The translations under genes and the position numbers were made by a program. A stretch of DNA of 64,000 nucleotides from NCBI GenBank assembly GCA_028753945.1, contig JAPNXP010000005.1:1178001-1242000 (forward strand), written 5' to 3'. Under the pieces are notes generated by a model. The model made no database searches. It worked only from the letters and a program-made list of their open reading frames with translations, and had not been told where the DNA came from. Positions 20,912 to 63,907 of this stretch are shown one piece after another (the first letter of the stretch is position 1; each line of letters starts with the position of its first letter). This stretch comes from Hexactinellida sp. DTS-2022 (lineage: Eukaryota; Porifera; Hexactinellida).

Positions 20912-22372
20912 CAGGTGTAAGCGCGTTTTGGGTATCCAGCGATTTAGGGATCCCCGTCCCTAAAACGCTAGCGTTTTCGGCCCTCTGGGTCCCTAAACGC
21001 TAGCGATATAGGGACGGGATCCCTAAATCGCTAGCGTTTTGTGGTCGTGGCGTCCCTAAATCGCTAGTGATACAAGTACGCCAGTGTTTTGGGTATCCTC
21101 GTTTCTGTGCCCTAAATTATCTAAAGTACCTATGATTACTTGATGATATATAGATATGTAATTATACTTCCTACGGTAGGCCTAACTAACACTACATTTC
21201 TTTGCAAATTTCACTCGCCAACTTATAGTTTGGGTCTGTCCACGCCAGTATCGGGATCCGCATACATTCTTCGTGAAACCATTCTTGACAATCTGCACAT
21301 TGTATCATTTTGCCTCCTTCCTGAGTACGGCATTTACAAATATATCGATCCTCTTTCTATTTTTGAATTATATTTTTACTTTCTATTTTTCTATTTTCTC
21401 TCACAAACTAAAGATAGTGAAGGATTTGGGCAATATATAGAAGACTATGCCTTGAGCCTATAGGTTATATATGGGTGGCCTTAGGTGGGGTGACCCAGGG
21501 TTGCCGTGGGTATGGGAATCAGATTTCCCTGTGGGGATACCCATATGGATCCCCATAGGAAACCCTTATGGATATCAATACTAGTGGTACAGAGCCGTTA
21601 CACCAGTTACGACATTTTTCTGAATTGTTATAGCAGCCTATTTGTATGTGTGGAAAGTTGCAAATGATTCATATGGGAATGGGATGGGAATGGAAATTCC
21701 ACTGCCACGGCAACCCTGGCACTTGGGTCCCTATATCTCCGAATTGATCCCTATATCGCTAGCGTTTTTGAGCTTATAAGTTATATATGGGTGGGGTCCC
21801 TATATCTCTGAATTGATCCCTATATCGCTAGCGTTTTTGAGCTTATAAGTTATATATGGGTGGGGTCCCTATATCTCTGAATTGATCCCTATATCGCTAG
21901 CGTTTTTGAGCTTATAAGTTATATATGGGTGGGGTCCCTATATCTCTGAATTGATCCCTATATCGCTAGCGTTTTTGAGCTTATAAGTTATATATGGGTG
22001 GGGTCCCTATATCTCTGAATTGATCCCTACATCGCTAGCGTTTTTGAGCTTATAAGTTATATATGGGTGGGGTCCCTATATCTCTGAATTGATCCCTATA
22101 TCGCTAGCGTTTTTGAGCTTATAAGTTATATATGGGTGGGGTCCCTATATCTCTGAATTGATCCCTACATCGCTAGCGTTTTTGAGCTTATAAGTTATAT
22201 ATGGGTGGGGTCCCTATATCTCTGAATTGATCCCTATATCGCTAGCGTTTTTGAGCTTATAAGTTATATATGGGTGGGGTCCCTATATCTCTGATTTGAT
22301 CCCTAAATCGCTAGCGTTTTGGGATCCATGGGGTCCCTAAATCGCTGGATACCTAAAACGCGCTTACACCTG
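20912..22372. mobile_element. Non-autonomous TIR element carrying a minisatellite
   Basis: Ends CAGGTGTAAGCGCGTTTT and the inverse AAAACGCGCTTACACCTG form terminal repeats of about 39 bases with one mismatch, enclosing 1461 bp. The subterminal parts repeat GATTTAGGGA and CGCTAGCG. The insert splits a MITE of the GGTTATAAGAACAT family, whose two halves lie at 20860-20911 and 22373-22447 and whose outer TA dinucleotides are at 20858 and 22448. No target duplication is clear. A 14-bp inverted pair CAGGGTTGCCGTGG/CCACGGCAACCCTG at about 21496-21718 marks a further small element inside. A plus-strand open frame at 21140-21463 is probably chance. Confidence 0.8.
21726..22300. repeat. 69-bp minisatellite, eight copies
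   Basis: The unit contains GGGGTCCCTATATCTCTGAA, then ATCGCTAGCGTTTTTGAGC and TTATATATGGGTG, repeated with an exact 69-bp period. The palindrome CGCTAGCG recurs in each unit. Units are nearly identical (occasional TAC for TAT), so the expansion is recent. Confidence 0.95.
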
Positions 22373-40275: not shown

Positions 40276-40595
40276 ATATATATTAGGAGCGAATTTATAT
40301 TACTCTTTTCTATTTCCATATTTATACAAATCTGCAAATCTTGAATTGCCAACGGATTATACAAGGAATTGACACATAATTCAGGGAGCCAAGCAAGGGT
40401 TTCATATACAATCCCAGGATTTCTTTATTTCTACTTCAAAGTTTAAATTATTGAATAAAATCAGAAAATCACTTGATAAGCAATATGCATTGTATTTGAT
40501 AAGTATTTTAGAATTATTTCAACTGAATTGAACTTTTGTAATGACTCTACATAAATAGTTTTAAGAATATTTTGAATTTAATTAGTAGACCGATA

Positions 40596-43500
40596 ATGCC
40601 TACAATTCATAAGTCGCATGAAACACAAAGAAAGACCCCAGATAACCTATTCAACTCGGAAGAGGTATTCTACTGCAAATACACAGGTAAAATATTCCGC
40701 ACTTACGAGGAATATATAGATAACCATTTCCTACTCTTGTCTCAGTTATGGACCTGTCAATACACGGGACAACAAGGCTTGACTTATTTCCAAGCGAAAG
40801 AAAGCGAAGATCAAGCACATAAGCTGGTACACGAACTACCAGAGGTGTTAATAGTCGCGATTTTAGCTGTCGTAAACTCAAGTTTACGTTTGTCGATAAA
40901 ACAAATTGTCATTGAAATGTCAGAATTATTTCGCACTCGCTTTTTGCTCGGAGAAAGTGTGAACGTGTTTGAACAAGGCAAGTATTCCGCCGGAGAAATT
41001 ATACAGGTACGCCATCCAAAGATAGCAGATGGGAACATTCTTGATTACATTTACAGTAACTATAGCAATGTCACGCCTGTACACCAATGTAGCCAAACTG
41101 GAACAGAGAATGGGAGTCAAGGAATACAAACAGACTTTAAAGTGTCAGCATTAGACAACCCAGAGTTGTTCCCAGATCCAAATGAATACGAATATGATAT
41201 TAAGCTACAGGGAGCACTCATCACACGCTGTAATGTGTCAAAAATATCTCGTACGAAAGGTGTTTATTCGCGCATGCGTATAAAATACTTGCTTCGCTCT
41301 TCGCTACAGAGAGGCATACCTGGGGACGATAACCTATCCGACTTGCCGCTTATCCTGAAGGAGGAAATACGGATAAAGTACGGGTTTCCAGCCTCGTACC
41401 CCCTCTCAGCCTTTTATACCCCCGACAGTACCTGGCTGCTGCCTGTGAACAGAGACCTCCTGCAGGTGGACTACAAGTACCGGATAAAGATACAGCAGGG
41501 AGTGAAGATGGACAGACTCCGGAAACAAGAGCAGCGGAGGAGAGATAAGGCTGAGAAGAAGGAGGTAGTGCGAATGGAGAAGGAAGGTGTTAAAAGCGCG
41601 ATTCTAGAGCTGAGGGAACAGCGGAGAGTTGAGAGAGAATCGAAGCGAATCGAATTGAGAGAAATCCGCGCGAAAGAAAAGGAAACTTTGAAAAACATAA
41701 AATTGGAAGAACAGAAGCAGAGAGAGGAGCTGGCTAACCCAGAGGAAGATACAACTTTAAAAAACTCAAAATTAATACCGCAGCCCAAAATATTCGAAAC
41801 TCAACTTTCAGTTGACACATTCAGCCGAACTGTCTCTATCCTTGAATTCTTTCGGTCGCTAGGGAAACACCTGGAGTCCGACTCAGGAATGTCATGGCAC
41901 ACTTTAACCTTTTCACAGCTGGAAGAGCTGCTGACGTCACACACACACGAGGGACATTTCTTCAAACTATTAAATTTCTTACTTCGCTCTCTATTCTTCC
42001 TACAAGAACAACAGGAGTACGAGTTATACCCTAGCTTAGAAGGTTTACACGAAAACAGTTCTATCGAGAGATCTAGGTTGGATACAGACACCGCTACACA
42101 CCCTGATGCAGTTAGCTACAAGTGCTTGGTCTGGCCTGCTGTCTATCTAGGCTCTAAGCTAAGCGAACTCAGAATAGACTCCTGTACAATATCAGAAGTA
42201 CTCAGACTATATTGCTTGTCTAGTGGAGGCAACTTAAACTCAGTCGACCGTAAAATGCATAGGATAATGCGTAGGGGAAACTATACCGACAGGGACAACC
42301 CGTGCATTCAGCTGAACCAGGAACATCCGTATATTCTAGCGGAACTGGAGACAACATGCGTGTTCGATCTCTGCGAACATTCCAAGGCTGTTATCCTAGA
42401 TACGCTGTGTACCCAGCTGTTGACGTGTGTGTTCATGCGTGGAGCCATGGATGAGTCCGTATCAGAGGCGAAGGAACTGAGAAAAGTAATCCGTTCTCTC
42501 TCCTCCAATAAGAATAGGAGGCGAAAGGACAGAAGTAACATTCCTAAGCAAGACACCGTAGCAACCGAACACGAGAACACAACAACAACAACAGTTGTGC
42601 CTGAACTCAGCAATATCGACACCTGTTTGAGAGAGCTAATGTCTGCTAACACTAGTCTGAGAGCAGTGCTATTGGGGAGGGACAGGTTCTACACTCGCTA
42701 CTGGCTATTCCAGTGTATCCCTGGTATATTGGTAGAGCCAATGTTATCCGAGGAAGTACCAGTTCCCGAAGAGGTTACTGAGCTAATGCTACACTACCAA
42801 AATGTTCTAGAACAATTGGAGACGGGTTTGCCTATGGATTTACAAATGGACACTACTAATCCCATTGAAAGCAGCATTTACGAACACAAACAAGCGATTG
42901 AAGTAGTCACACTTTATCTCAAAGAAGATTCTTTAGATGGGAACACACCAGAGCAAGATCCAGTATTCACAACTCAGCTATCAGAACACAGCAGTACAAT
43001 TCAATGCACACACACCATGGATACCTGGGCTAGCTACGCCACTATACCCGACATAGACGCGCTCTGTGAGTCTCTCAATAGGAGAGGGCTACGGGAATCC
43101 CAGCTCCTGGAGAGTATACAGAAGTACAGACAGGCTATTCAGGAACAGATCGAGCTAGCTCCTGTCTCTCCCCCCTCCCCCGCCCCGCCCCAGCAGACAG
43201 GGGAACATCTGGTGAGCAACACGGAGCTGGCCTCTGAGTACCTGGAGCTAGCGCTAAGAGGACAGATCCTAGATTTGGAAGAGAAGGTGTTCACGAGTGG
43301 GTTCGGCGCTCTCGCGGAGGTTAACAGGTCCGATTGGAGAGAGGAGTTTACGAAGGGCGGCTGTCCCCTCACCTCCCCCTCAAAGACGGCTGTTGCCTCC
43401 AGAACACCCGAACTCCCAGATAACACATTCGGCGTATCTTCCTACGTACGCTTGGACCCCACAAGCGGTGGGAGCAGTGGCACGGTGCACGGAGTGGTGA

Positions 43501-44489
43501 GTGAGATGTGTCGGTGTCTGCTCAGCTTACAGGAAGGAATACACAGTAAGTATCTACAGCAGCCACTGGGGACCTCAACGCTAACTCAGCAACAAGGCAA
43601 GAAGAAGCAGTCAGCAGCTAACCACAGCTGTCTACACGCCTGGAGGTGTTCCCTCGCGAAATGCACCTCTCTCTCCCAAATAGCTCTGCACCTATCCGTT
43701 CTAGAATGTTCCATTTCGTGGAATAAATCGTTAATGAACGCTCGCTGCAAGATCTGCCGGCGAGGCCGCGACGAGGATTGTCTGTTGCTGTGCGATAAGT
43801 GCGACAGGGGCTACCACACATTCTGTTTAACGCCGCCGCTTAAGTCGATTCCGAAGACGGACTGGTTCTGTCCGGACTGCCAGCCCGCAGCCCCTGTCCG
43901 TCCCAAGTCCCGCAAGCTCCGCGGGGCGTATGCCGAGAAAGCCAGCCCTCCGGACTCCAATGACGTCAGCAGCAACTCTGATAGCAGCTCAGAGGAGTCC
44001 GACTCTTCCGACGGAAAGTCTAGCGCCACTGAGTCTAGCAACGGGGGTAAGGCGAGGGTTAGAGCCTACAAGGGCAGGAAGAGAATGGCAGCTGGGAAGA
44101 GGAAGCAAACTGCGCCTATTGCTAAGCAAACGCGGGGAATTAAGAAGCAAAAAATCGACGTAGCGACTACGATAATTCTATGCGAAGAGATTGTTGAGAA
44201 AGTACAGAATCACAGATTAGCCGATCCGTTCATAGACCCCGTATCTGATCTGGAAGTCCCTGATTATACCCGCGTTATAAGACAGCCCATCTGTCTACTG
44301 AATATCTCAGAGAAAATAGCACAGGGTGTGTATAAGTCAGCGGAAGAATTCAACCAAGATATGGAGCTAATATTCTCAAACTGCCAAACGTATAATAAGC
44401 CGAATTCCCCTATTTCTCGTGCGGCGAATAATCTACGTAGTTTCTATAGGAAACTGATTAACCAGTATCCTGATGTGTTTTATACCTAG
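40596..44489 (+). CDS. BAZ1A: BAZ1A/ACF1-type chromatin remodeler subunit, intronless
   Basis: A 1297-residue single open frame. I start at the ATG of [11 protein letters not shown] (40596); ACF1 proteins begin similarly with MP. Domains in order: WAC at about 22-125 ([34 protein letters not shown]); a long charged helical stretch at about 305-385 ([15 protein letters not shown]); DDT at about 408-475 ([15 protein letters not shown]); WHIM motif with [20 protein letters not shown] at about 692-711; PHD finger at about 1051-1097 ([30 protein letters not shown], all zinc ligands present); a Ser-rich acidic and then basic linker; and a C-terminal bromodomain at about 1190-1292 with the acetyl-lysine-binding Asn in NCQTYNKP. 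This is the full ACF1 architecture, the partner of ISWI (SMARCA5) in nucleosome-spacing complexes. It is shorter than human BAZ1A (about 1556). WAC also occurs in BAZ1B, so the paralogue call is less sure than the family. Confidence 0.92.
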
Positions 44490-45104: not shown

Positions 45105-48100
45105 ATGTCAGAATTCAATTCAGTCGGAAATGCAATGAACTTTGCGAAGCGTTTCAAGGCATTTGAGTGCGGCGTGTGTCACCAGCCGTACCAGGTGGAG
45201 GGAGACCTACAACCGCGGATATTGGACTGCGGCCATACTTTCTGCACGCGTTGTATGGGCGAGGTTTCGCAGGTTGGCAACATACAGTGCCCAGCTTGCA
45301 TGCGAAAAACTCAAGTTGACTTCGGCACTCAGTCTCTGCGCATAAACTACGCAATTCTGGAGATCCTAGAGAAACAGGACAGTTACACGCCCAAGCCGCG
45401 GGTCCCGCTGTGCGAGGCCTGCAGAATGGCGGAGGCGCAGGTGTACTGCGAGCAGTGCGGGCCCGAGGGATTCAGACTCTGTCTCCGCTGCTCTAACGTA
45501 GAGCACGACAGACCCTCTCCCATCGCTAGTGAGTTACACAGTATATTGGGCTGGGGTAGCTTGCAACTAAATCGCTAGTGAGTTTACACAGTCTATTGGG
45601 CTGGGTAGCTTATCTGAGTACTCGTGAAGCAGGGTTCATTCGTAATTTTGAAAGGAAACTTTTCTAGGCGCGCGAAAATTGAGAAATGCTCCCATAGACG
45701 TAATCTAAATTGAGTATTTAGGCGCGTGTGAGCGAGCTCAAACTTAATCAATGCGTGTAGATAATTTTTCCTGGATGAAAGCCTGTGTTGTAGTATTATA
45801 TAGCAGTGGTCCCAACCTGGGGTCCACAGACGGCAGTAGGTATACACAAGATCTCAAAATTTGTATTACGGTCAATGAGAGGGGGTCCACTGAATGTCTA
45901 AAATTTGCTATATCGCTGTTATAGAGCATACTGTACAAAGGCGAAAAGTATTTGAATACTTGTCTCATGACAGATGACAGGAACACATAAGCCAGTTCAA
46001 ATATATCGACATAACATACATTATGTGAAACAACAAGGTTTCCAAGTTTATATCGATAGTACGGTGGTGTTCGCTTAATAGCAAGTCACATTTTGCAGGG
46101 AATTTGCTTTCAATAGGCGAACTTGCTATGAGGAAGAAATTAACATTAAATGCTCGCTTGGGGACTGAAAATAACTTGCTAATAGAGCAATATTATTGCT
46201 ATTAGGCGAACACCACTGTATGATATTTTAGTAATTTCAGATTTAATACTATATCAATGTAGCAGACGAAAAACTGTTTCCAATAAGCAGACCTGACTGT
46301 ATTGTATCCTATAGAGCTCCATAACCCCACTGCGCTTGGGGTAACCACAGAGTACGAGGCTAGACCGGTGTGTGGCACGCACAACAACCCACTGGAGTTC
46401 TACTGTCTCTCAGATAAATCTCTCAAATGCACTCTATGCAAGCAGGAAGCAGCTATTGCGGAGGCAGATGTGGTGGCTATCCCAGAGGCAGTTTCTGCTC
46501 ACAAGGACAGACTCAGGTCCCAGCTGAGGCACCTGCAGGCATACCAGTTCACCATAAGGGGCGCTATGGAGCAGGTAACGCTATAGCCACAAATATACAG
46601 TATTATAACTATGTATAGAGATTTCACTGTATAATTAAAGGATAACTTTTTGGCAATTCACCTTTTAATTGGAACTAAAATATCTCTATTGAAATTCAAT
46701 TAAAATGGAGAAATGAAAAGTTTTTTGGTCACTCTACTATTTTGGTGATATCACTTCCAATATGTAATACGCGTATTATATTAGACCCGTATTTTGACGG
46801 TCTAATATAGCTCAAAATAAATTACCACTGGCACATACAGTAGGTGCTGGATATAAGAACATTCTACTGGAAAACTGTTGCCATATACCCCTATGCACTT
46901 TATCCCGGTTATAAGAAAATTATTCTGTATGCAGTTCCCGACGATGTTCGTATAACGGAATCTACTGTATACGTTTTAATTTGTATAAAAATTATAATAA
47001 AAGAGTTATTGGGACCAAGCAATTATACAAGAAATGAATTAATATGTGCTATTGCAGTTATTGGCTTTACACTACTTTACATGTACATGTATATATTCTT
47101 TCACTTATTAAACTTCATTATATGTTTACTTAGGTTAAGTGTATCCTGACTGAGCTGCGGCCGTCCTCGGACCGGGCCATGGACTGTATCCGCATTGAGT
47201 GCAGAGCCCTGGAAGCCTCGCTGCAGAAGCGACAGGCCGGCCTGCTTAGCATGGTGGAGACGGAGGAGAAGAACAGAACCGCCAGACTGCAGTACCAACA
47301 GGAACACCTGGCTGTAGCCGCTACAAGGATATCTAAGTAGGCAACTGATTGGGAGGAAAGGAATGCCATCGGGGTTGCCTTATAGAAATGATTTACTTAT
47401 ATATCGGAAACACCTTTTTTAATACACTTTTAAAGCACTATAAAGTCATTTTTTAATATCAGAAATTCACCTTTGCGAAGCCGGGTTTTAATTGAAAATG
47501 TTTTATGAAACCTTATGAAAATACGTTTATTAACAAGGGACTTTAAAACCCATCTTATTCAGTTCCTCTAATAACAAGTTTGCCTATTAGCATAACCACA
47601 ATAAGCACCTTGATCAATGTATCCCGATATACACTCAAGTCTGCTTATGGTGAACAATTTTCCGTCTGCTTAATATGAAATTTATTGTATTATGTCCAAC
47701 TTAACAACTTACATAGGGTTTGGATTAAGTTGAGTTCGCTTATATTAATTCTCTATATTATGAATACAATTTTTGATCCCTTTAATTTAATGTTCATAAT
47801 AAAAGAACCTGACTGTACTACATTATTATTAATCCCAATGACTTGTCATTACAAATTACCAGGTTGTTATACAGTACACTCAGTGTATTATAAAGTCATT
47901 TGTAAATACGCTCCTAATCCTGGTCTGATCCAATTTACACGCGCCTAAATCACAAATTAATGTTAAAGTAAAGAGAGGATTCCAAATCTTCGCGCTCTTA
48001 AATTAAAATTTTCCAAAAATCATGCTCCAAAAGGAGCGTCTCGCGATCCTGGATAATTCCTTGAGTACATTTATATACAGTACATTAATAGGTGTATTGA

Positions 48101-51100
48101 TTTTGCGAATGTCCTCCTACAGAAAGACACAAGTGAGTTTTTACGCAGCAGCGACTCTGTGATAACTAAGCTAGACGAGACTCTACGTGACGAGGATAAG
48201 GGCCTGCATAAGCCGCTAGCTAACACAGGCCTGCCTGTTTATCTCGACACCACATTCATACATCTGGTGGAGAACTTTGGTGTCGTGGGAGGGGGCCCGA
48301 TACCAAAGAACATTGAAGCAGTACATATCAAAGGTTAGACCTCTCACTATCTCTTCATTGGTATATTTAAAGAAGGGCTTACTTAGTGTATATCAGTGAT
48401 GTGCTCCGTTACTCAGCACATCACATCAACGGTAACGGTAACGGACATCCGTTACTTTCAATTAGTTACCGTTACCGTATCTTTAATCAGTTACTCTTAC
48501 CATTACATTACCGTAATGTCACTTACCGTTACTACGTTAAATTATTCCATTGCCGTTACTCCGTTACTTTTAGTCAGTTACCGTTACATTAAGGTAACGG
48601 AAGAAATATAGTAACGGTAACGGAAGGAGTAACCGAATATTTAGTAACGGAGCACATCACTGGTGTGTATAGAGTATTTGACGAATTAGGTGGTTTGGTG
48701 GCGTTAGCCCCCAAAAATCTTTCTTAAGCCACCAAATTTTGCCTTGGTGGCTTAACTAATCCACCAAAGATTGTGGATTATTTGACTCTGTGTAGATTAT
48801 GTTGCATTATTTTTATGAATATTAGTGTTGTTTACGGCATCAGAAGTTTGTTAAGCCATCAAAGATGGTAAACCGGCCGTTGTTTATTCTTTAGCCACCA
48901 GAAAAGTGAGGTGGTGGCTTAATTAGCCACCATCAAAATTTCATTTTGTCGCGCACTGGTATATACGTAGGTCTCAACACCTTTTCTAATGTAATTTCAG
49001 GCACTAACATTCAAATTAAATAGAAGTCAGCTGGAATTTATAAGTTAAATCAATATATTTATCTCAAGTTAAACAATAGAATTAGATTCAGTATGATTAT
49101 TACAAGTTGAAACAATGTAAATTGATTTAACAGTTTTACTGAATCTAAAGTGTTAGAAATACAGGAGATTGGCACCCCAATTATGGCGCAAACCTAGGCC
49201 AAATTGAACATTGGTGATTTGCCAAAAGGTGTAGAGTTTAATTATCTTTCCATATATGTAAATTTTATCAAGTTCACTAATAATTATTTCATCTTATGAG
49301 CAATAATTAGCCTAAATAGGTGTTAAGATTATTTGATCAAAAATCGTAACCCCAGGTGCAATTAGACGGTAACTCTTACATGCCAAGTTTCAGCCCTCAA
49401 TGTATAAAGGTATGCCCAGGGCACCGTCTACGGAGAAATAATATAAATAAAGGCAGTGAGATTAGTACTGGGCCATTATACTATTGTATAGTCGGCACAG
49501 TAATAATTTCATATTAGACGAAAATTGTTCATAATATGTAGACCTGATCCTGACTGTCAGTTACTTTTTTTTCACCCTAAAATGAGCCTCTTACTGCAAA
49601 TTCAGCTTCCATAAACAAGTACACATGATTATTTTCGTTACTGAACATCTAATAAATGAAATACTTGTACTTTTTTTATTGGCTCTAGCGTGCAACCTGC
49701 GTGCTGGTGCTATTTCTAGTGTATCGACTTATCTGATACCGTAAGAATTATCATTTTCCTTGACATTGATTAATTAATATATTTATACCACTTTGAGGCA
49801 CTTTTTATTAATCAAATTAGATATAACATCGATCAATGTATACGCTTCACCTGACTGTATATTCACTCCGGGTATAAATATTTAAATAGGATTTCGGGCC
49901 TTGCATTCCTTATACATATATGTATTCCTCGACTAAATATGAAATTTCAAATTATAATGGATTATTTATCAATTTCTTGGTCTACATTCATTGAACATAT
50001 ATGGCTAATTTTGAACAGATAGATTCAACGTATCTCAATACTAATGCTACCCTTTTAAACTCAGAAATGATTATATCTGAATTGACAAATCTACCGTCGA
50101 AAGTATTAATTGCGCTGACATATCCAAAGCGAAACTTTAAGTCTACTTTTGAACATCTGTCTCAGGCTTTGGATGAAATATTCTTAAACCTTGGTAACCC
50201 TTTCCTGAAGGCAGCATACAAAATAAGGGTGACGCCTTACCCTTTGAACGTTGCCGTGATGAAATCGGGAACAGCACAAGAAGAGGGCGGACATTTAAGC
50301 TGGATAGATGATGATGGTATTATTTTGATTAACAATGAGCACATATTCAAAATACTCTCAGAATTTCATTTGTACTGTCATGGCAGAGAACAACAAATTG
50401 TGCAATTAAATAGCGAAGCTGCGCAAAATGCCTTAGATTTGTAGGAAATAATGGATATACTAGATAATCCACCACCGCTAACTTTAGAATATCCACAAAC
50501 TGACTTAATTCAAAATACTATTACTTGCAACGATTCTCTTTCGAATGCCTCTACTGATTTATCAACATCAGTTATTCCATCGGTCACTCTGAGTAGTGAC
50601 AATTTTCCCAGGGACAATTGTGACTACAAATTGATAAAATCCTCTAAGGGACAATGATAAATTATGACACGAAGGATTCATCTACAATTTTCAGCGTGAA
50701 GATAGTGTAAAGAAGCAGTGGCGTTGTCAAGTAAAAACTGTAGGGGGCGTATACATACAAAATCAACAAATATCCTTAAAATGATTGGCGAGCACTGTCA
50801 TGGACCAGAGATCGGAGCTGAAGAAGTACTTGTATTCCGCGCAGGTATTAAGAGACGGGCTCAAGAATCTCACGATAATCCACATAGAATAGTTGCGAAA
50901 ATATCTGGTAGTTTGTCTGAGATTGCTAAAACCCTTTTACCACCTGAAAAAAGTCTGAAAAGAACCTGTCAAAGAGTAAGGCCAGCTCGAGCTAACCCTA
51001 CTTCCCTCTTGGATCTCGTAATTGACCAAAATATTAAAACCCTAAGGGGGAAAGAGTTTTGTATACGATTCTGGGCCAGGGTCAGATAGAATTATAATGT

Positions 51101-54100
51101 TTGTTACAGAAGAAAACAAAAATATACTAACTATATGTTCGATATGGATGGCAGATGGAACATTCAAGACTGTTCCTTCTTTATTTGCACAGCTTTACAC
51201 AATCCATGGGTGAGCTGGTGGAGTTTACCCTTTCCTGGATGGACATCTGCTTCCATGTATTTATGTTTTACTCCCAGGCATGAGTTCATTCTCTTATCGA
51301 AAGATGTGGAAGATTATAAAAGACTTATGTCCTAATTCTAATCCCCAATATTTGTTGGTAGATTTTGAGAAAGCTGCCTTAACTTCCGAGAGGTTTGGGC
51401 TTTAACAAATGTCAAGGGCTGTTTTTTCATTTATCTCAGGCTGTCTATAGAAAGATACAGGAAGTTGGGTTGCAAACTCGCTATCTAAATGATCTTGAAT
51501 TTTCGTTACTCCTCAGAATGCTACCTGCTCTAGCTTATTTACCACCTCAACATCATTACATGTTGTACACACTTTTGAAAGCTTAAAAGCTCAAGTTCCT
51601 CATGAAGCACTACCGCTATATAATTACTTTGAAAGTACTTATGTTGGGAGAAGAGATGAATTTGGATATCGAGATGTGGAACAACTTTCACTTAGTTCGA
51701 TATGGAATACCGAGGACAACGAATGCAGTCGAAGCTTGGCATCGCGCGTTTTCAGTCACCGTTGCATGTCACCATCCAACATTCTGGAAATTTTGTCATG
51801 CATTGACTATTGAATAATCTAGCGTCGAACTGAGACAAGCACAATACTATAAAGGAATTCGACCAACTAAATATAAAAAGTCACTGGAAAACGAATCAAC
51901 ATTGGTGACGATAGTAATGAATTACTTCACCAGACCAGTTATGGTTTTTCTTAAGAGCATTGCTTTTAGAATAACTTTTTAGATAAACATCTTATACCTC
52001 CATACGGTAATTAAATGGAATAGTTCCTATTAACAGTTAATTTAGATTCTTTTAAATTCAGCCTCTACTTCAACTCAACTCATCGATTGCCTTATATCTA
52101 TAATTATCATTCATAAATAAAGATAGATTCTCGTTTATTTGTGTGTTTGATCAGATTATTAAATTGAAATATTACGAATAAAGTTGATATTATAAATTAA
52201 TAAGAATGGGTCATTACTCATTATCCATCACTTAATGTGACCCATTTACAGTCTGTACACAAATGTCGCTGTACACAAAAATCTCTGTACACAAATGTCG
52301 TATTTCCCTAAATTACATTACAATGTGTTGGCTGATATACAAGTATTTCCTTAATTACTAATTTTATCTAAATTTGTATAAATACCAATTTAATGCGCAT
52401 TTATAACTGGCTAGGTTCGCTGTACATTCAGTGGGACCCGCCGGATATGAAGGTGCTGCAATACGAGATAGAGAGGGAACTGGTTAATGACGACAAACAT
52501 TATTTAAAGGAAGAAGACCCTCAGGTTACACTCTATGACGGATCTCTAGTCAGCGTTAGGATAATAGGACTAGCTCCTGGATGTACTTACAGGTATTAAC
52601 CAGCAAATTAACTACTGTTAAACATTATACAGTAGTGTTCGTATAATAGCAATTGCTCAAATAGCAAATATTGCTCTATTAGCAAGTTATTTTCGGTTAC
52701 CTATGGGTTTAATATTGTTCCTTTAAAGTTTTTTCTTTCCTAAGTCTAGTTAAAGTGATGTAGAAAAATGTCTATCAATTAATTGACCAATTCATCTTAT
52801 TACAGTACATAGGCGTAAAGTTTTGGAAAATATAATCAAAGATGGGGGGTGGGGGGGCACTGGGAGGTTTACTAAATATATCCAGATTTGTTTCTTCAGA
52901 AACAAAATCTGGATATATTGAGTAACAAACGTGATTCTCACCCTCTATCATCCCTTGGGCGATCAAAAGGACCACTTTCATATAAAAATTAAATCCACTG
53001 AAAGGTTTGGGGGACCGCACCCAGTGACCCCCAGCCCCCCAATCAGCAATACGGGGGTTGCCGGGGCCCCAAAACCCCTGCTCGGCGTCTATTATAGGAA
53101 GTATACAGTGCAGTGTGAAGCCATAACAAAGACGGTAAGTACCGTCATAGATAGAAAGTATCCCTGGTTAATTACGGTTATAGTAATAGAGGTAAGTAAT
53201 CCGTCATACAACAGTACAAAACTGGTCGGTCATTATTATGTTTGCATGTAGATTTTCGTTTTGAAACATATATTCTGGATTACACGATAGCACCTGACAA
53301 ACGTAAATATTATACGTAAATATTAGTTGCAGATCAATTAAAACAGTCATATATCTTAGTTCTATTCTCCTACTCCTTAACATGCCACTATGCCAATCCT
53401 GTTGCTAATGATAAAATGGTAAATACTAAATAGAGACACACCCACGGTAATTTGGTTTCTCAATCCTTTGAATTCAACCGTTTTCTCATGATTGGTTAGA
53501 ATTGTGATACACTATGATTACATTACAAGTATCCTATTGTTTATATCAGTTCGTTAAAGAAAGTTAAAACGATGTGAAACTTTCTATAAATAAGTTAATG
53601 ACCACACTATCGTGTGACCTTTTACACACAAATCACAGAATACAGTCGACTTTCGTAAATACAAACACGAATAAGGCCAAATATCGATTAAGGAGTACAA
53701 GGTTTAATTCTCTTAGCCTACACAATGACTCCAGTTAATACGAATTTTCAATAATACGAAAAATTTCGACGGTCACCTGGTGTTCGATGAACGAGAGTAC
53801 TGTAATTCGATACAAGGTATGTTATTGGGACTGATAACTCCTTTTGGAGTATGATTTTGGAAATTTTGAATTAGAAGCGCGGAAATTTGGAATCTTCTCC
53901 TATACCGTAACATTAATTTGTAATTTAGGCATATTAAAATTGGATCAGACCAGGATTAGGAGCGTATTTACAATTGGCTGCATAATACACTGATCCGTAC
54001 ACCAAGGGACCATCAAAATGTGTACTCATCCGAATTTCGTACTAACCAATATAATTGTATTGAAAAAGCTTTGAATGGCACTGAAATAGTATTTGTATTA

Positions 54101-57100
54101 ACCGGAATCTCGTATTAACTGTGTTCGTACTAATGAGGTTATATTGCAATCAGATGAATTGTTAAACCGGTATCATTTGTATTGAAAGGCTTTGAAGTGG
54201 ACTAATTTATTGTACGTATTAACCGTGTTCCACTAACGAGGTTCTACTGTGCTGTATATTATAGTGTGGCTTAATAGATTCCGTATCCGTTCTCAGAACG
54301 CGGCTGGCTGGGGAATGTGGTCGCATACCTTCTCTGCCACTTATTCGAACTTCCCTTTCGAGTTCACCTACTGCGGAGAGACGGTAGAGACGGTTATACC
54401 GAACGCGGGTTATTACCGGTTCGAGAGTTTCGGCGCTAAAGCGGATGACGGAGAGATGAGACTGGGAGGCGCGGGGGCAATTATGTGTGCTACGTTCCTT
54501 CTCAACGCTAGTGAGTTAAAGTTATGCTCGCTGTGTTAATGCTAGGGTGTTAGACGCTCTATGATCCAACCACGATCCTCAAAAAAATCGCGATTCGGAT
54601 CGTACGATATAAATGACAAATTTATAGCAGCAATTACAAATTTATAACAGCTAAATTGCAAAAGTAAAGGTATTTTTACTGATTGAAATAAAATACTAAC
54701 GATTCTGATCAGAGATGCAGCGGTCCGGAAATTTCATGGACCGGACCGTTATGATTTTTTCTGGACGGTCCAGACCGTTATATCCCTTATTTGGACCGTT
54801 ACAGACTGCATAGTAGAGTGGCTAATTATATCCACTTGTGTGTATAAGATACTTATTACTTATGTCAAAGTTATGTGCATGTAAACAATGGGGAAATGAC
54901 GGATTAGAGCCCGATCGTTTGTCCAATCTATGATGAGTCCAGAGTCCAGACCTATGAACGGTCCAGACCATTATATCGTTAATTTGGACCGGTCCAGACC
55001 GCACTTGAAATAAGCTGACAGGTCGGTCAGGTCCAGACCGCAGCATCTCTGATTCTGATAGATATAGTTGCTTAACTTTAGTTATTGATTTCATATCCAT
55101 CCAAATTTTGTAAATACTAAATAGGGTAGTCAAATCTTGGAAATATATTTTTGGAAAAAGAAAACCTGACTTTCAGGACACTGTTTATGTGAACATTTTA
55201 AGATACCCTTAACACAAACTGCTTATAACAACTTAACAACTTAATTCAATATTGGAACACACATCCACTTATGCTGGTCTAAATCTAATATTAGATTATT
55301 GACCTTTCCCTGCTGGAGACACTCCATACCGTAATTCTGACCTTTCTTATTTTAATTAAGAAGGTGTTTTCACACACGGGTATATTGCTATTGTTGTTAT
55401 TGTTGTTATTCAGACAAATATACAATCGAGTCCGCTTAATGAGGTCACCCAAGAAATTTAACGAAAATATTGCAAGTTTACGATATACGTAATATCGTGT
55501 TATGTTTTAAATTACACGAACTCTTTGGTCTCAGTCGCTTCGCGACGAATCTCTCAATCATTACGCGGTCACGCTTATTTAATTAATTAAATAATCAATA
55601 TTATATTTACACTAAAAATATGAAAAAATTGAATTCGTAATCAGCATACTGTTTACCATTTCTAACTTTTGGAAGCTAGTGTCAGTTTCATCTCTAAACC
55701 CGTTATTACTCAATTCCAATATTCCCCTAACCATTTACGAACGTAACAGTTTTTATGTAATCACGTGACATTAAACTTAATTAACAATACGTATTGCTAT
55801 TCTATGCATGGATTCAGTCGTGTCATTAATTAAGAGAAATTCACCAACTAGTATATCCTGATTATCTCATACGTTCGATATTAATTACGAACTTACAGTA
55901 AACTCCAGTTTACAACGAAGTCGGATATTACGAAATAACCGCTTATAACGAAATGTTTATTTTCCCCCAGAGCACTAAATGCATTAATTATTTTTCCGCT
56001 TATAACGAATATCCGGATAAAATGAAGGGATTTACAGGCCCCAAGCACTTCGTTATAACTATGTTTCACTGTAATTATCTCAAATACAGTATTATTTTAG
56101 ACTACAATAGAACCTGTTAATTAATAACGGCCACGCAAGGGACTGACAAAAATGGCCGTTATGCTCAGGTGACCGCTGTACATAGGCGCCAAATTTGGGG
56201 TTTGGGGGGGGGGGAGTCACTGGGAGCGACCTCCCGGACCTTTCGGTGGATTTATTTTTTGTATGAAAGTGATCCTTTTGATCGACCAAGGGATGATATA
56301 GGGTGAGAATCACGTTTGTTTACTCAATACAGTCAGGTTCTTTTATTATGAACATTCAAGGGACCAAAAATTGTGTTCATAATAGAGAGACTTCATAATA
56401 AGCGAACTCAACTTAAGGCTCGACCCACACCTTCACTAATATTGTCCCTATCAAATCCAAACATATATCAGTTTTAGCCCTATCTATACTGCTAATAAAT
56501 CCGCAATCAGAATTGAATTCGAATAATATTCACTCAAGTGATTGATTATAGTTCCATATTGCGTAATATTAAATTCCTATACCCGATGATTTTTTAACCA
56601 CCCAAATTTAAAAAAAATTATTGATGATTAAGAGTTGTTTAGCATTTTGATATAATCTATGTATACTAACAAAGAGCTGCTAGCACGGAGATGTGAAATA
56701 GTATTCACAATATTGTTCAGTAATGTTTCAAATTGAAAATAATCAAATTTCAATGATTATTCTGCATTTTTCTGATTCAAACACTTACAACAATTAATTT
56801 TATTTATTGTGAATAACGTAACTGCTAGCAGTCCTTGATCTATGTATGATTTATATGTCTGAAGTCTAAAATTACTAAATACATTTAAGAATTTTTCTAA
56901 AAACAGGTGGTGGCATGTGTAGGTTTGGAGTTTGGAGAAAAATAATTGATTATTTATATTATATTACAGTTTAACTATATATATACACTCCATTCAGTTG
57001 GAATCTTAAATAGTGGTTATATAACAATGTTAACTAAGTATTATGCAGTGGTTTAATCTTAAGTTATGTAGTATTTAGCAATAAAAATTAGATAATTCCG

Positions 57101-60100
57101 CTATAAAATGTGACGAAATCCCGACAAAATTTTGTATTACGTCAGTGGCGCAAAGTGGCGCAAGGTGGTATATTTCCTAAAGTATTTGGAATTTCGGGAT
57201 GAAAATTTCTGTGAATAAACTCCATCTATAGACCATGCGGAAAATGCAATCATATACAATTAATCAATGTTCTGGGCCTCCGTCCTGAAGGTGTGGGTCG
57301 AGCCTTAATACAAACCCTATGTAAGTTGTTAAATTGGGACCGTAGGGTTTGTTCATAATAAAAAATCTTCATAATAAGCATACGAAATCTTGTTCATAAT
57401 AAGCAGACCTGACTGTATATCCAGATTTTGTTTCTGAAAAAACAAATCTGGAAATATTTAGCAAACTTCCCAGTGGCCCCCCCCCCCCATCTTTGATTAT
57501 ATTTTTCCAAAACTTGACGCCGCTGTACACAGTTCATTATCATACGTGAAGTCTTGTGGGACCAGGATTTCATTCAGGCGCGTGATTTTAAAAGCAAACT
57601 TTTCTAGGCGCGCGAAAATCGAGAGATGCTCCCATAGACGTAATACAAATTGACTATTTTAGGCACGTGTGAGCGAGCTCAAACTAAACTAAGCGCACAG
57701 GAAAATTTGCCTGGATGAAAGCCTGTGTGGGACCTATTCTAAGCGGCCGTTATAGACAGGTTATATTGTATTATTGATTCCTTGTAGATGACTACTTGGA
57801 CATATTATGCGGCGGTATGTCTCAGAAGAGAGGGTGCTGTTCCGGAGGGGCGGGGGGCACATTTGTGTCCATAAACGGAAGAAGAAACCCTCTCATAATC
57901 GCCGGGGGAGGAGGGGGCACCCGCGGGTACGAAGAGGACGATCCGGACGGACAGCCCGGGAACCTAGAGGTGAGAACCGAACTTTGAAATTTTGAAACCT
58001 TGAAACAAATAGTCTTGCTTCGTTTTTTGATAGATTAATGGTCTATTTTAAGGTTAAACTTTTTACATATACCATATACGTATATGAAATTGAACAAACG
58101 ATCTACTATGCAGTCTTTGAACTCTCCTATAGAGAGTTCAAAGACTCTTTGAACAAACGAATTGAACAAACGATCCACTATGGACTATGCAGTCTGGAAC
58201 AGTCCAAATAAGGGATATAACGGTCTGGACCGTCCAGAAAAAAATCATGACGGCCCGGTCCGGTCCATGAAATTTAGGACCGCTGCATCTCTGATTAGAA
58301 CCCACCAAAATATTATTTTCTGGATTATAAAAAAAAATTCGGGACAATTTTGGCCCACGAAAACAACAAGCGCTGGGGCGCTTATTAGAAGCAATACGGT
58401 ATTCCACAGACGATAAAGTTGAGTGTAGCACTAAGTAAGTATAAGTAGTTAGTGTAGCACTAAGTAAAGTATAAGTAGTTGAGTATAGCACATAGTTCCG
58501 CAAACTAGGTTTTTCAGGCCGCATGCGGCCTGCAACAACCTTATGTGTGGCCTGATAGCCCAATGGAAATTTGTATCATTTGTGGCCTGAGAGAAAATTT
58601 CTATTTCATCTGGCCTGTACACATATACACACTGATTATTACCTTTTGACTAGAGTCCTTTATGCACTTTTTGCTTAGAAATTAGTATAGTTCTAGTATT
58701 ACAACAACGCAACATAATAGTTTTGTTATAAATTTCGAAAAATTTCTCGATATTGTTTGCGGCCTGATATAAATGAAAGTTTGCGGAACCCTGGTATAGC
58801 ACAAAGTAAGTATAAGTAGTTAGTGTAGCATACTGTAGGAGGAGGGCGGCGGCAGCATAGGGAAGGAGTGCGCTATGGGGGGAGCTGCTGGGGGCTGCGG
58901 GAAGGACGCTATTTTCAGGAACTCTTCGTTCGGCTACGGCGGAGCTGGGTACAACACTAACTCCACTACGAGCTTCTCTTTCGTATCGGGTAATGCATTG
59001 ACTATTGTTAAATGAAGTACTATTTATTAATTCAACCAGCTTACAGTAGACTCTCGTTAATTCGACACGGATTAGAGTACAAGTTTAAATTCCATAGCCT
59101 ATACAAATACATGCAAGTGACTCTGGCTAATACGAATTTTCGGATAATGCAAACTATTTTCGACGGTCCCCAGGTGTTCGTATTAACGAGAGTCTACTGT
59201 AATTTTATAGGATTTAATTTGTTTGCTTATTTTAAAGTTACTTAAATATTATTTAACATTTGGTCTCTCGGTTAACAAGAGCTACTTCCTTGATCAGTGT
59301 TTCTTAACAAAAGTAATACACATGAAGAATGCTTAAAAAATTAGAAAAATTGTACTTTATTTGACAGTAAAATTGATAGATAATCATAATTTATGAGTAA
59401 CTAAAGCTAGCTGTTACGTAATAGAACTAAATATATACCTGTAATTACCTGACTGTTTTAATCATGACATAATGATTATGAAATGGATTGCAAAGAATAC
59501 TTGAGTATAAATTCTAAAGTTAAACTGAGCTAACAGTCATTATATTTATTTACATTATATATAGTACGTACTTCGTAACGTTGACTTTTATTCATAAATA
59601 CCAAATTAAATAATGCAAAATATATTATAGCGTAAACTGTCATTATTTATATTTACTTCGTATTTTCATTTGACTGTTCCTTGCTATTATAAACTACCAA
59701 TTAAAATAACTGCAAATTCCTTTGAGCCCTATGGTCTCCAGGAGGCGAGTCGGGGGAGTGCGGCGGCTTCGGCGGGGGCGGTGCTATCGGCTCGTTCGGC
59801 GGGGGCGGCGGGGGCGGGTACTCGGGGGGCGGAGGCGGTAGGGGGGCGGGAGGGGGCGGCTGCTTCGTGAGAGAAGACGGAATGGAAGTTATAAAGAAGA
59901 TCGGACACAACGGACATGGTATGCTGAGAGTGTCGCGTGTGGAGATGCCAAAAGAAGCGGAATTGGTAAGCAAATCTATTTATTATTATTTCAAATTAAA
60001 TACAGTCAACTCTCGTTCTAACGAACTGCTTGGGACCTGTAAATTGCTTCGTTATATCCGGATATTCGTTATAAGCGGATATAATTAATGCATTTAAATC

Positions 60101-61416
60101 ACTTGGGGGAAATCTCCATTTCGTTATAAGCGGGTATTTCGTTATATCCGACTTCGTTATAACGAGAGTTATAACGAAAATTATTTTAGCAACTTTACCC
60201 AATTCAATTACAGCAGAACCTCGTTAATCCGTACACCAAGGACCGTTAAATTTGCAATTCGTACTAACCGGGTCATTTGTATTATAATGGTCTGGAGGGG
60301 ATTTAAATTGTGTACTTAATAAACTGAATTTCGTATTGAATTTCGTATTCTACTGTAATTTAATTGGGTAAAGTTGCTAAAAATAATTGTTGAATTTTGA
60401 ATCTGACAATATTAACCACAAATTAATACATATTGACACTTATTTTCAATAAACTCATTGTACTAAATTTAGTAATTCTATATACTGGAGTACTTTTAAA
60501 CTTACAATTCTAAAACCAAAAAAATACTCTTTAAACGATTCAAAAGTAATTACTTATAAATACTTTATTTGTTTATATTTTTTCGCGTTAGAGACGAAAA
60601 CTTTAGTTATACATATATAATTTAAATACAAACAATTGCATGACAAATATTCTTCATTTTTGTAGTGTAATTGAAAGATCTTACTCGTGTATATTATATA
60701 CGAAAAACATACTAATAAAGTAATAATATATTTATTATCTTGTGTTAATGCTATTAATGGAATTACTTAACTGTATATCGGCCAGCACATTTTCTAATAT
60801 AATTTTCAGGCACTGGCAAGGTAATTTATTTTACATCAAAAAATTCACCTTTGCGAAGCCGGGTTTATATTGAAAATGGCAATACAGTCAGAGGCGGCGC
60901 AGCTTTTGGGGGCCCCCGGGTGATCGACCTTTTAGGGGCCCACCTTTTTTGGAAGCCCCCGGACCCCTACCTAAATTCTTTGTAATCGGTTTAGGGGCCC
61001 GCGGGTGAATCACCCGTGCGGGGTGCGGCCGCGCCGCCCATGAATACAGTAGAAGAACTAATTAGTCGTTAGTATGAACAACAGGGGACCGTCAAAATGC
61101 ATTCGCCTTATCCATAATTCGTATTAACCAATATGGTTGGTTTAAGAAGGCTTTGAAGGGGACTAAAATAGTGTTCGTATTAACCTGTTCGTATTAACGA
61201 GGTTATATAAATCCTTTATTAAAATCCTTGTGTAAATAGGTTGCGCAACATAGTGACACACTGCATACAGAAACTACTCATTTGGACCCAATCCCCATCC
61301 CAATCCCCAGCCTATTACACAACACAATAGATCCCATTTCAATCGACCTGTCTTCCACACTAGGCGTTCTAACAATAAAAGACCAATCTCTCTCAGCTGA
61401 TAGTTTCATTAGCTAG
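45105..61416 (+). CDS. TRIM-type E3 ligase fused to FN3 and ALK-like glycine-rich domain
   Basis: Ten exons: 45105-45528, 46315-46574, 47134-47313 (or to 47336), 48123-48333, 52415-52592, 54278-54510, 57788-57969, 58839-58989, 59742-59965 and 61240-61416. With the first choice for exon 3 all phases close, giving 739 residues. RING: Cys22, 25, 42, His44, Cys47, 50, 62, 65. B-box1: about 103-134. B-box2: from about Cys161 (CGTHNNPLEFYC, CTLCKQ). Coiled coil: about 200-300. FN3 is split over exons 4-6 (PIPKNIEAVHIKG, SLYIQWDPPDMKVLQYEIER, YRFRIRSQNAAGWG). Next comes a domain of about 240 residues like the ALK/LTK glycine-rich region (CGETVETVIPNAGYYRFESF, PLIIAGGGGG, long GGGG tracts, GHNGHGMLRVSR). 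The last exon encodes 58 residues ending TAG. No signal peptide, membrane helix or kinase is seen. Likely a cytoplasmic ubiquitin ligase; the substrate is unknown. The ATG at 45105 precedes the RING. Confidence 0.8.
45620..45790. mobile_element. Dispersed element, TCTAGGCGCGCGAAAAT family
   Basis: Shares CTTTTCTAGGCGCGCGAAAA, GCTCCCATAGACGTAAT and GTGTGAGCGAGCTCAAACT with a copy at about 57568-57727. Both begin near TTCATTC and end CCTGGATGAAAGCCTGTGT. It lies in intron 1 of the TRIM gene. Confidence 0.75.
46058..46218. mobile_element. MITE, CACCACTG/GGTGTTCGC family, in TRIM intron 1
   Basis: Ends GGTGGTGTTCGCTTAATAGC and CTATTAGGCGAACACCACTG are inverted. The same family is nested at 28728-28849 and truncated at the window's right edge. 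The right end lies about 95 bases before exon 2. Confidence 0.8.
46845..46970. mobile_element. MITE, GGTTATAAGAACAT family, in TRIM intron 2
   Basis: Begins CAGTAGGTGCTGGATATAAG, contains GGAAAACTGTTGCCATATAC, and ends CGTATAACGGAATCTACTG. TA flanks are present. Confidence 0.75.
47400..48060. other. TRIM intron 3, three repeat fragments
   Basis: Holds a TTCACCTTTGCGAAGCCGGG fragment (47400-47505), a GTTGAGTTCGCTTATATT MITE (about 47640-47818, ending CTGACTG-TA) and the reversed GGAGCATGATTTTTGG dispersed repeat (47900-48055). Confidence 0.65.
48394..48663. mobile_element. hAT-type MITE rich in GGTAAC, in TRIM intron 4
   Basis: Ends CAGTGATGTGCTCCGTTAC and the inverse GTAACGGAGCACATCACTG are exact. 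Flanks GTGTATAT and GTGTGTAT differ by one base, so an 8-bp duplication is likely. It starts 60 bases after exon 4. Confidence 0.85.
48990..49510. repeat. Partial copy of the 1-kb cluster repeat
   Basis: Contains AAATAGAAGTCAGCTGGAAT, CCCCAATTATGGCGCAAACC, AAAATCGTAACCCCAGGTGC and one palindromic unit ending GTCGGCACAGTAATA. It lacks the hairpin. Confidence 0.8.
50001..51830 (+). pseudogene. Decayed FLYWCH/MULE transposase inside TRIM intron 4
   Basis: A second, older MULE-family gene. A 147-codon frame from 50001 (starting MANFEQIDSTYLN) has no recognised domain. It ends in a TAG at 50442-50444 but continues in the same frame from 50451 (MDILDNPPPL). A FLYWCH finger follows, broken over frames: HEGFIYNFQREDSVKKQWRC, then NCRGRIHTKSTNILKMIGEH and CHG. 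The MULE core is also split: WMADGTFKTVPSLFAQLYTI, then FNKCQGLFFHLSQAVYRKIQ, then RYGIPRTTNAVEAWHRAFSV. At least five frame changes or stops make it dead. Unlike the 11897-13499 gene, no RING finger follows. Its inverted ends were not identified. Confidence 0.75.
52800..53090. mobile_element. GC-ended element with TATATCCAGATTTG arms, TRIM intron 5
   Basis: Begins near CAGTACATAGGCGTAAAG. It contains an internal inverted pair TATATCCAGATTTGTTTCT and AGAAACAAAATCTGGATATA, then GTGATTCTCACCCTCTATCA. A relative occupies 56180-57530 but is interrupted there by other insertions. Confidence 0.7.
54710..55051. mobile_element. hAT-type MITE with 8-bp target duplication, TRIM intron 6
   Basis: Ends CAGAGATGCAGCGGTC and GACCGCAGCATCTCTG. 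ATTCTGAT is duplicated at 54702-54709 and 55052-55059. The interior repeats GGTCCAGACCG. A truncated, reversed relative lies at about 58110-58293 in intron 7. Confidence 0.93.
56104..57772. mobile_element. Nested transposon stack in TRIM intron 6
   Basis: Outermost element: ends CAATAGAACCTGTTAAT and GGCCGTTATAGACAGGTTAT near 56104 and 57772. Inside it sits the CTGTACATAGGCG element (about 56180-57530). Inside that, a TA-flanked MITE starts CAGTCAGGTTCTTTTATTAT (56330) and ends AGCAGACCTGACTG (57415). Inside that, a TTAA-flanked element spans 56417-57304. A separate insertion of the TCTAGGCGCGCG family (57568-57727) also splits the outermost element. The broken ends of each host element can be matched to its intact relatives elsewhere in the window. 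Confidence 0.85.
56417..57304. mobile_element. piggyBac-like MITE with TTAA target duplication
   Basis: Inverted ends GGCTCGACCCACACCTTCA and TGAAGGTGTGGGTCGAGCC (19 bases, exact) are flanked by TTAA at 56413-56416 and 57305-57308. It is 888 bp and AT-rich with no transposase frame. TTAA duplication is diagnostic of piggyBac-type insertion; the ends start GG rather than the common CC. Confidence 0.85.
58491..58793. mobile_element. hAT-type MITE with 8-bp target duplication, TRIM intron 7
   Basis: Ends CATAGTTCCGCAAACT and AGTTTGCGGAACCCTG. GTATAGCA is duplicated at 58483-58490 and 58794-58801. It interrupts a short tandem repeat (AGTGTAGCACTAAGTAAGTA) whose copies lie on both sides. It ends 45 bases before exon 8. 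Confidence 0.9.
59044..59199. mobile_element. TA-flanked MITE in TRIM intron 8
   Basis: Starts CAGTAGACTCTCGTTAATTC and ends CGTATTAACGAGAGTCTACTG-TA. The inverted ends are nearly perfect. It belongs to the AATACGAACACC family. Confidence 0.88.
60003..61205. other. TRIM intron 9, MITE-rich
   Basis: Holds a CAGTCAACTCTCGTT MITE (60003-about 60175), an AATCCGTACACC MITE (60215-60360), a fragment with TTCACCTTTGCGAAGCCGGG (60780-60880), a GC-rich element with ends CAGAGGCGGCGC and GCGCCGCCCATG (about 60893-61041), and another AATACGAACACC-type fragment to 61205. No additional exon is recognised. Confidence 0.6.
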
Positions 61417-62827: not shown

Positions 62828-63826
62828 ATGCGAATGTTAGCATTCCTATCACAACTATACAAACCTACAAGCTACTATAAAATGGCTAACCCCCTACCAG
62901 ATTTGCCCCCCTCTCCTCCAAACAGTGTCCCAACAGCCCCCACCTCTCCCAACCGGATCTCGACAGGATCCGGCCCCACCTCCGCCTGTCGGGCCCTCCC
63001 TAAGGAAGATAATCTGGAGGCCCTGATTTATACGAGGCCGGCGTACTCCCAATCGTGGGGCGGGTACCGACAGGACCTGATGCTAGAACCGGTATCGGAA
63101 GATCTCATCTGCGGACTCTGCGCGGGCGTCGCTAAGGAGAGCGTGCAGACTATTCACTGCGGAGCCGTGTTCTGCAGGGGCTGTATGGAGCAGGCGTTCG
63201 TTAGAGCTAAGCCGCTGCGCAGAAAGAAGATGAGCAGTCCAGGGTTAACCGGGACCGGGAGCTCAGAGCTCGTAAAGATAGAGTGTCCGAAGGAAGGCTG
63301 CAATGTACAGTGAGTCTAATACAGTCAATACCCGTTAATTAATTCCAATACTCGTTAATCTGGTCACCTTAACGGCTTAACCGATATTTCGCCCTATCTG
63401 TGTTCATATTAATGAGAGTATACTGAAAATCATCAATTTTTATACCACGGCATCAACAATGTCTTTACTGTGTATTCAGTAATGCCTGTTATTTATGGTA
63501 TTACGTACTATGTATTCAGTAATGCCTGCTATATAACATATTACTGTGTATTCATTAATGCCTGTTATTTAACATATTACTGTAGATTAGCATCAGACGG
63601 ACAGTTCCCTGACACGAGACACCAGAACCAGGTGGCCAGACTGCAGGTGGCTTGTCCCCTCCTCCAGTCGCGTTCCTGTCCTTGGAGGGGGAGCATAGCG
63701 GACCTGGTTAACTCCCATATAACCGAGTGCGAGCTGGCCCGCGTCCCCTGTCCGGTCGGGTGCGGACTGAATGAACTGAGGGGACAGATCGAGTGGCACC
63801 TCAGAGAGAGGTGTGGCAAGAGACAG
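62828..63826 (+). CDS. RING and TRAF-type zinc-finger E3 ligase, 5' part
   Basis: Two exons, 62828-63309 and 63586-63826, join in phase to 241 codons; the second ends at a GT donor, so the gene continues beyond the window. The first ATG is at 62828; a later in-frame ATG at 62882 (MANPLPDLPPSPP) is an alternative start. The N terminus is Pro/Ser-rich. The RING is at about 94-160: CGLC, then HCGAVFCRGC, a Ser/basic insertion of about 28 residues and CPKEGC. Exon 2 encodes TRAF-type zinc fingers: CPLLQSRSCPWRGSIADLVN, then HITEC and CPVGCGLNELRGQIEWHL with ERC. The order fits TRAF or TRAF-finger E3 ligases (RNF151/LNX/PDZRN-like) acting in ubiquitin signalling. The missing 3' end (coiled coil, MATH or PDZ) decides which. 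Confidence 0.85.
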
Positions 63827-63907
63827 GTGGGCTAGTTATACAGTATATATGCAGTATATATATTGCTATGTAAGCTAGTTATACAGTAGATAAGCAGTAT
63901 ATTCCTA

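What the first reader, a model, noticed from the sequence alone, without database searches (positions are those of the whole stretch)
45105..61416. A TRIM ubiquitin ligase whose SPRY position is taken by an ALK/LTK-type glycine-rich domain
Seen: splice phases link RING, two B-boxes and a coiled coil (exons 1-4) to exons 5-10. The FN3 domain straddles the 4.1-kb intron 4: exon 4 ends PIPKNIEAVHIKG and exon 5 begins SLYIQWDPPDM, the first strands of one FN3. Exons 6-9 then encode a glycine-rich domain like that outside the ALK/LTK kinases. The frame ends in exon 10 with no membrane helix or kinase. Known: subfamily C-I TRIMs (MID1, TRIM9) have RING, B-boxes, coiled coil, FN3, then SPRY. Inference: the SPRY was replaced, giving a cytoplasmic ligase with an otherwise extracellular ligand-binding-type domain. 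I am not aware of a described protein of this architecture.
Basis: partly seen in the sequence, partly recalled or inferred. Interest (0 to 1): 0.88.

Follow-up and report, generated by a model that had tools for sequence, protein, structure and literature searches.

The report
Sponge TRIM with ALK/LTK-type domain
This is an intact gene, probably from a sponge, for what looks like an intracellular ubiquitin ligase whose target-reading end is a glycine-rich domain best known from the outside of the ALK and LTK receptors, and relatives with the same layout show that it belongs to a real gene family.

The parts
45105..45528 (+). exon 1: start ATG, RING (C3HC4, residues 21-65), most of B-box 1
46315..46574 (+). 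exon 2: end of B-box 1 (last His), degenerate B-box 2, start of coiled coil
   Evidence: B-box 2 stretch scores 26.7 bits when scored alone, 20.8 of 24.1 in the whole protein
47134..47336 (+). exon 3: coiled coil
48092..48333 (+). exon 4: end of coiled coil, conserved VGGG linker, first FN3 strand (my first acceptor 48134 corrected to 48092)
52415..52592 (+). exon 5: middle of FN3
54278..54510 (+). exon 6: end of FN3 and first beta strands of the glycine-rich domain (domain starts near 54345)
57788..57969 (+). exon 7: glycine-rich domain (GGAGGTF, LIIAGGGGGTRG)
58839..58989 (+). exon 8: glycine-rich domain
59742..59965 (+). exon 9: glycine stretches and last beta strand of the glycine-rich domain (to about 59944)
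61240..61416 (+). exon 10: 58-residue tail and stop TAG; not conserved, least certain exon

Best explanation
The gene encodes a soluble, cytosolic or nuclear, TRIM-type RING E3 ubiquitin ligase. The coiled coil would make an antiparallel dimer with a RING at each end (general TRIM knowledge, recalled). The FN3 plus ALK/LTK-type glycine-rich domain (GRD) would sit where SPRY or NHL sits in other TRIMs and bind the substrate, as a conserved protein-recognition module made of a TNF-like beta sandwich and glycine helices; the RING would then ubiquitinate what is bound. Shown: gene structure, domain order, homology of the GRD to that of ALK/LTK, conservation in relatives, no membrane anchor or secretion-like start in the window protein.
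Against: No expression data for the window gene itself; the transcript belongs to a relative of the other locus. The window protein fails Pfam's PF12810 cut-off (9.9 of 24.5 bits); P0001, P0006 and P0099 do not list that family at E <= 0.01, P0002 has 17.5 bits, and the contig 9 protein does not list it at E <= 1. B-box 2 has lost zinc ligands, and TRIM_CC is below cut-off (21.3 of 30). The window's own protein was not folded; the models are of relatives. No substrate or activity is known.
Confidence: 0.72

Rival explanations
1. The FN3-GRD is a structural or self-association module (assembly of TRIM dimers into a lattice) rather than a reader; substrates bind elsewhere or through partners.
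For: The GRD core is dominated by invariant or nearly invariant glycines, and it is conserved better than the rest, which fits a framework role as well as ligand binding.
Against: Identity where neither residue is glycine is also high (47.7%), and the homologous domain in ALK/LTK binds a protein ligand (ALK:ALKAL2 and LTK:ALKAL1 complexes listed).
Confidence: 0.2
2. Two neighbouring genes were joined by eye: a TRIM ending after exon 4 and a separate FN3-GRD protein.
For: Intron 4 is 4.1 kb. Of 118 database hits 84 carry GRD and FN3 patterns, and only 3 of these a RING pattern.
Against: P0001, P0002 and P0006 carry RING to GRD in one protein, P0003 and P0099 from just after the RING. The contig 9 locus has the same order over about 11 kb. 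Of the 13 RING-less FN3-GRD hits that I read, 12 begin in the coiled coil or the linker before the FN3 and one (P0088) inside the FN3, as exon-wise gene calls would give (inference). Exon 4 ends inside the FN3.
Confidence: 0.03
3. The glycine-rich part is a low-complexity expansion, not an ALK/LTK domain.
For: Pfam score of the window protein is low (9.9 bits), and several relatives do not list the family at E <= 0.01.
Confidence: 0.01
4. The protein acts outside the cell or on a membrane, as ALK/LTK domains do.
For: The GRDs of ALK and LTK are extracellular (PMC10605310, passages seen).
Against: No hydrophobic segment or signal-like start in the window protein (highest 19-residue mean 1.28). 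The highest among seven sequences is 2.05 in P0099, and that stretch lies in a GRD strand. RING and B-box 1 have intact ligand patterns.
Confidence: 0.04

Closest known systems
ALK and LTK receptor tyrosine kinases (TNF-like/glycine-rich, 'TG', domain)
   Different: No EGF-like, MAM or kinase family listed at E <= 1 and no membrane helix seen; the GRD follows an FN3 in a RING protein.
FN3-bearing TRIMs such as MID1 and TRIM9 (C-I by recall; Class I in PMC3503706, passages seen)
   Same: RING, B-boxes, coiled coil, FN3 in that order.
   Different: GRD instead of SPRY; B-box 2 degenerate; no COS model listed; descent from C-I not tested by a tree.
Dysidea avara 'E3 ubiquitin-protein ligase Midline-1-like' (P0002) and uncharacterized protein (P0003)
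   Same: Same architecture (P0003 without the RING), 38% and 37% identity over 89% and 81% of the query.
   Different: Database names only; P0002 is named after MID1, yet a GRD match was listed (17.5 of 24.5 bits) and no SPRY at E <= 0.01.
GRD plus HECT protein P0109 (unnamed metagenome sequence)
   Same: A stretch like the window's glycine-rich domain (47% identity over 34% of the window protein, E 1.2e-40) in another ubiquitin-ligase type.
   Different: HECT domain (E 2e-25) was the only Pfam family listed at E <= 0.01, PF12810 was not; no RING, B-box or FN3 listed; not folded; organism unknown.

Membership tests
TRIM/RBCC E3 ligases | N-terminal C3HC4 RING | tested here: met
   zf-RING_5 32.2 bits over cut-off 27.9; full ligand pattern; model of relative P0002 fits the TRIM23 RING, TM 0.90
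TRIM/RBCC E3 ligases | one or two B-boxes | tested here: met
   B-box 1: six Cys and two His invariant in 6 of 6 sequences. B-box 2 stretch 26.7 bits when scored alone but 20.8 below cut-off 24.1 in the whole protein, and it lacks the last His ligands
TRIM/RBCC E3 ligases | coiled coil after the B-boxes | tested here: met
   TRIM_CC E 0.00027 but below cut-off (21.3 of 30 bits); continuous helix 204-312 in the P0002 model, at pLDDT about 50-80 only
TRIM/RBCC E3 ligases | ubiquitin ligase activity | not testable with these tools
   needs an in vitro assay
C-I TRIM (MID1/TRIM9) | COS box | tested here: inconclusive
   no COS model among families listed at E <= 1; that this Pfam copy holds such a model is recalled, not checked
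C-I TRIM (MID1/TRIM9) | FN3 | tested here: met
   35.8 bits over cut-off 25
C-I TRIM (MID1/TRIM9) | C-terminal SPRY | tested here: not met
   no SPRY listed at E <= 1; in the models of two relatives that place is a GRD
ALK/LTK glycine-rich domain (PF12810) | score over the curated cut-off | tested here: not met
   window protein 9.9 of 24.5 bits; relative P0019 passes with 25.3
ALK/LTK glycine-rich domain (PF12810) | TNF-like sandwich with glycine-rich lattice (the ALK/LTK fold) | tested here: met
ALK/LTK receptor tyrosine kinases | secretion signal, membrane helix, kinase | tested here: not met
   none seen in the window protein (hydropathy only; no kinase family at E <= 1); next ORF is RING/TRAF-like

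The most novel reading that the evidence does not exclude
The ALK/LTK glycine-rich domain is an old intracellular reader module of ubiquitin ligases, found with RING/TRIM in sponges and with HECT in an unnamed organism, and the receptor ectodomain of ALK/LTK is one later use of it outside the cell.
Probability: 0.15. Interest if true: 0.85.

Novelty: new variant of a known kind. Interest (0 to 1): 0.62.

Why it matters
TRIM ligases are sorted by what their C-terminus carries (PMC3503706, abstract passage). That paper's main text holds neither 'glycine-rich' nor a word starting with 'ALK'. The ALK/LTK domain is known as the outer ligand-binding part of two receptors. Its presence in what looks like a soluble ubiquitin ligase, conserved between relatives, would mean that the fold works without a membrane or secretion. 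It gives a second setting in which to learn what the domain binds, and a way to ask whether it arose before or beside the receptors.

Tried and rejected
Family search of the whole genome with PF12810 found nothing, not even the known loci, so it says nothing about absence. A microexon between exons 3 and 4 was sought; none was convincing, but one row of the list pointed to the earlier acceptor at 48092, which closed the gap. A search limited to residues 80-520 kept 3 proteins, and one with the six-sequence alignment kept 1; I take both as limits of the word filter, and neither shows absence outside sponges. For a SPRY-type TRIM ancestor in the genome: 11 SPRY and 23 B-box matches listed, closest pair about 396 kb apart on contig 1, so no support for replacement. 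The searches read exon by exon and are lower bounds, and the B-box search missed the contig 9 TRIM-GRD locus. Shared introns between the two loci: 0 of 9 identical, one pair four bases apart in the alignment, so intron positions do not help to date the fusion. Sponge origin is inferred from the closest named relatives (Dysidea avara) and is not proved. The paper searches were partly capped: one search listed 20 of 68, one search listed 12 of 1,470, one search listed 12 of 173; some searches were listed in full, and one search found 0. Considered and dropped: low-complexity artefact, joined neighbours, receptor fragment (see rivals).

Full report
What is there. The window lies on contig 14 of a 112.4-Mb genome in 18 contigs. 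Between 45105 and 61416 on the + strand, ten exons with GT-AG borders and matching phases join into a 757-aa frame with one stop at its end. My own first exon 4 acceptor (48134) left out 14 residues that the relatives have; the acceptor at 48092 restores them. The order is RING (C3HC4), B-box 1, a degenerate B-box 2, coiled coil, FN3 split by the 4.1-kb intron 4, a glycine-rich domain over exons 6-9, and an unconserved tail in exon 10, the least certain exon.

Is it one gene. A protein search scored the 7998 candidates sharing most words and kept 118 at E <= 0.001. P0001, from a transcriptome (EukProt) and labelled as a complete ORF, matches at 44% over 91%; P0002 and P0003 are Dysidea avara database proteins; P0006 and P0099 are unnamed. 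By loose patterns, 3 of 118 carry RING and GRD (P0001, P0002, P0006), and 2 more (P0003, P0099) lack the RING but hold B-box to GRD; a fourth RING protein, P0118 (TRIM71-like), has no GRD. 107 of 118 carry the GRD pattern, 84 GRD and FN3, 77 GRD, FN3 and linker. Of the 13 RING-less FN3-GRD hits that I read, 12 begin in the coiled coil or the linker after it and one inside the FN3, which I read as exon-wise gene calls. Some contig lengths recur in the table (1186303 three times, 552817 three times, 443789 twice), which suggests clusters of paralogues elsewhere; this is inference.

The same genome holds a second locus on contig 9. Its pieces match P0001 in order within about 11 kb and join with GT-AG borders into a 738-aa stretch whose N-terminal end I did not model. 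It is identical to the window protein at 322 of 716 aligned residues and to P0001 at 657 of 736. P0001 is thus the transcript of a close relative of the contig 9 gene, not of the window gene. The two loci share 0 of 9 intron positions exactly; one pair lies four bases apart.

How it probably works. The window protein has no SPRY, NHL, kinase, EGF-like or MAM family listed at E <= 1 and no hydrophobic helix or signal-like start by hydropathy. The next ORF starts about 1.4 kb downstream and is RING/TRAF-like by below-cut-off matches. I therefore infer a soluble TRIM ligase whose FN3-GRD holds the place of SPRY. Mean pairwise identity among six sequences is 56.9% for the GRD (47.7% where neither residue is glycine), 38.9% FN3, 38.3% RING (6 pairs; the others 15), 35.7% B-box region, 25.1% coiled coil. 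A reader that is the best-kept part of the protein argues for a fixed partner or a structural role rather than a fast-changing pathogen sensor; this is inference from few sequences.

What remains unsupported. 'SPRY replaced' implies a SPRY ancestor. In this genome 11 SPRY and 23 B-box matches were listed, the closest pair about 396 kb apart, so I see no such ancestor; but the searches are blind to introns and the B-box one missed the contig 9 locus. No tree to MID1/TRIM9 was made. Sponge origin rests on the named relatives.

Print. Eight searches of the paper library listed no paper on this architecture; three of the listings were capped. I saw passages of PMC3503706 and PMC10605310, and otherwise only listings. 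The library lacks most subscription papers. Databases already hold relatives, so the sequences are known, while I found no description of the architecture.

A wider hint. P0109, an unnamed metagenome protein, joins a stretch like the window's glycine-rich domain (47% identity over 34% of the window protein) to a HECT ligase domain; PF12810 was not listed for it at E <= 0.01 and I did not fold it. In the window genome its glycine-rich part matched only the two TRIM loci, while its HECT part matched other loci (16 candidates scored). Two ligase types with such a domain make an intracellular origin worth testing.

Noticed in passing
P0109 (database protein, 975 aa): An unnamed metagenome protein joins a stretch like the window's glycine-rich domain to a HECT ubiquitin ligase domain.
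   Followed up: partly
G000 contig 9, about 1910596-1921422 (L020, L021): Second TRIM-GRD gene in the same genome; its intron positions differ from those of the window gene, and one 5.3-kb intron is largely a repeated unit, seen in its translation.
   Followed up: partly
window 62828-63830, +: ORFs with RING-like and TRAF-type zinc finger matches, all below cut-off, directly downstream; probably one further ubiquitin ligase gene.
   Followed up: partly
window 11897-12989, -: A MULE transposase domain ORF followed by an overlapping ORF with a RING finger; possibly a mobile element that carries a RING.
   Followed up: no
window 40572-44489, +: One open frame of 1305 aa with WAC, WSD, PHD and bromodomain, like BAZ1/ACF1 chromatin factors (likeness recalled; domains).
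   Followed up: no
window 18337-19518, +: One open frame of the glycosyltransferase 10 (fucosyltransferase) family.
   Followed up: no
window 21725-22320: Tandem array of 8.6 copies of a 69-base unit at 98% match.
   Followed up: no
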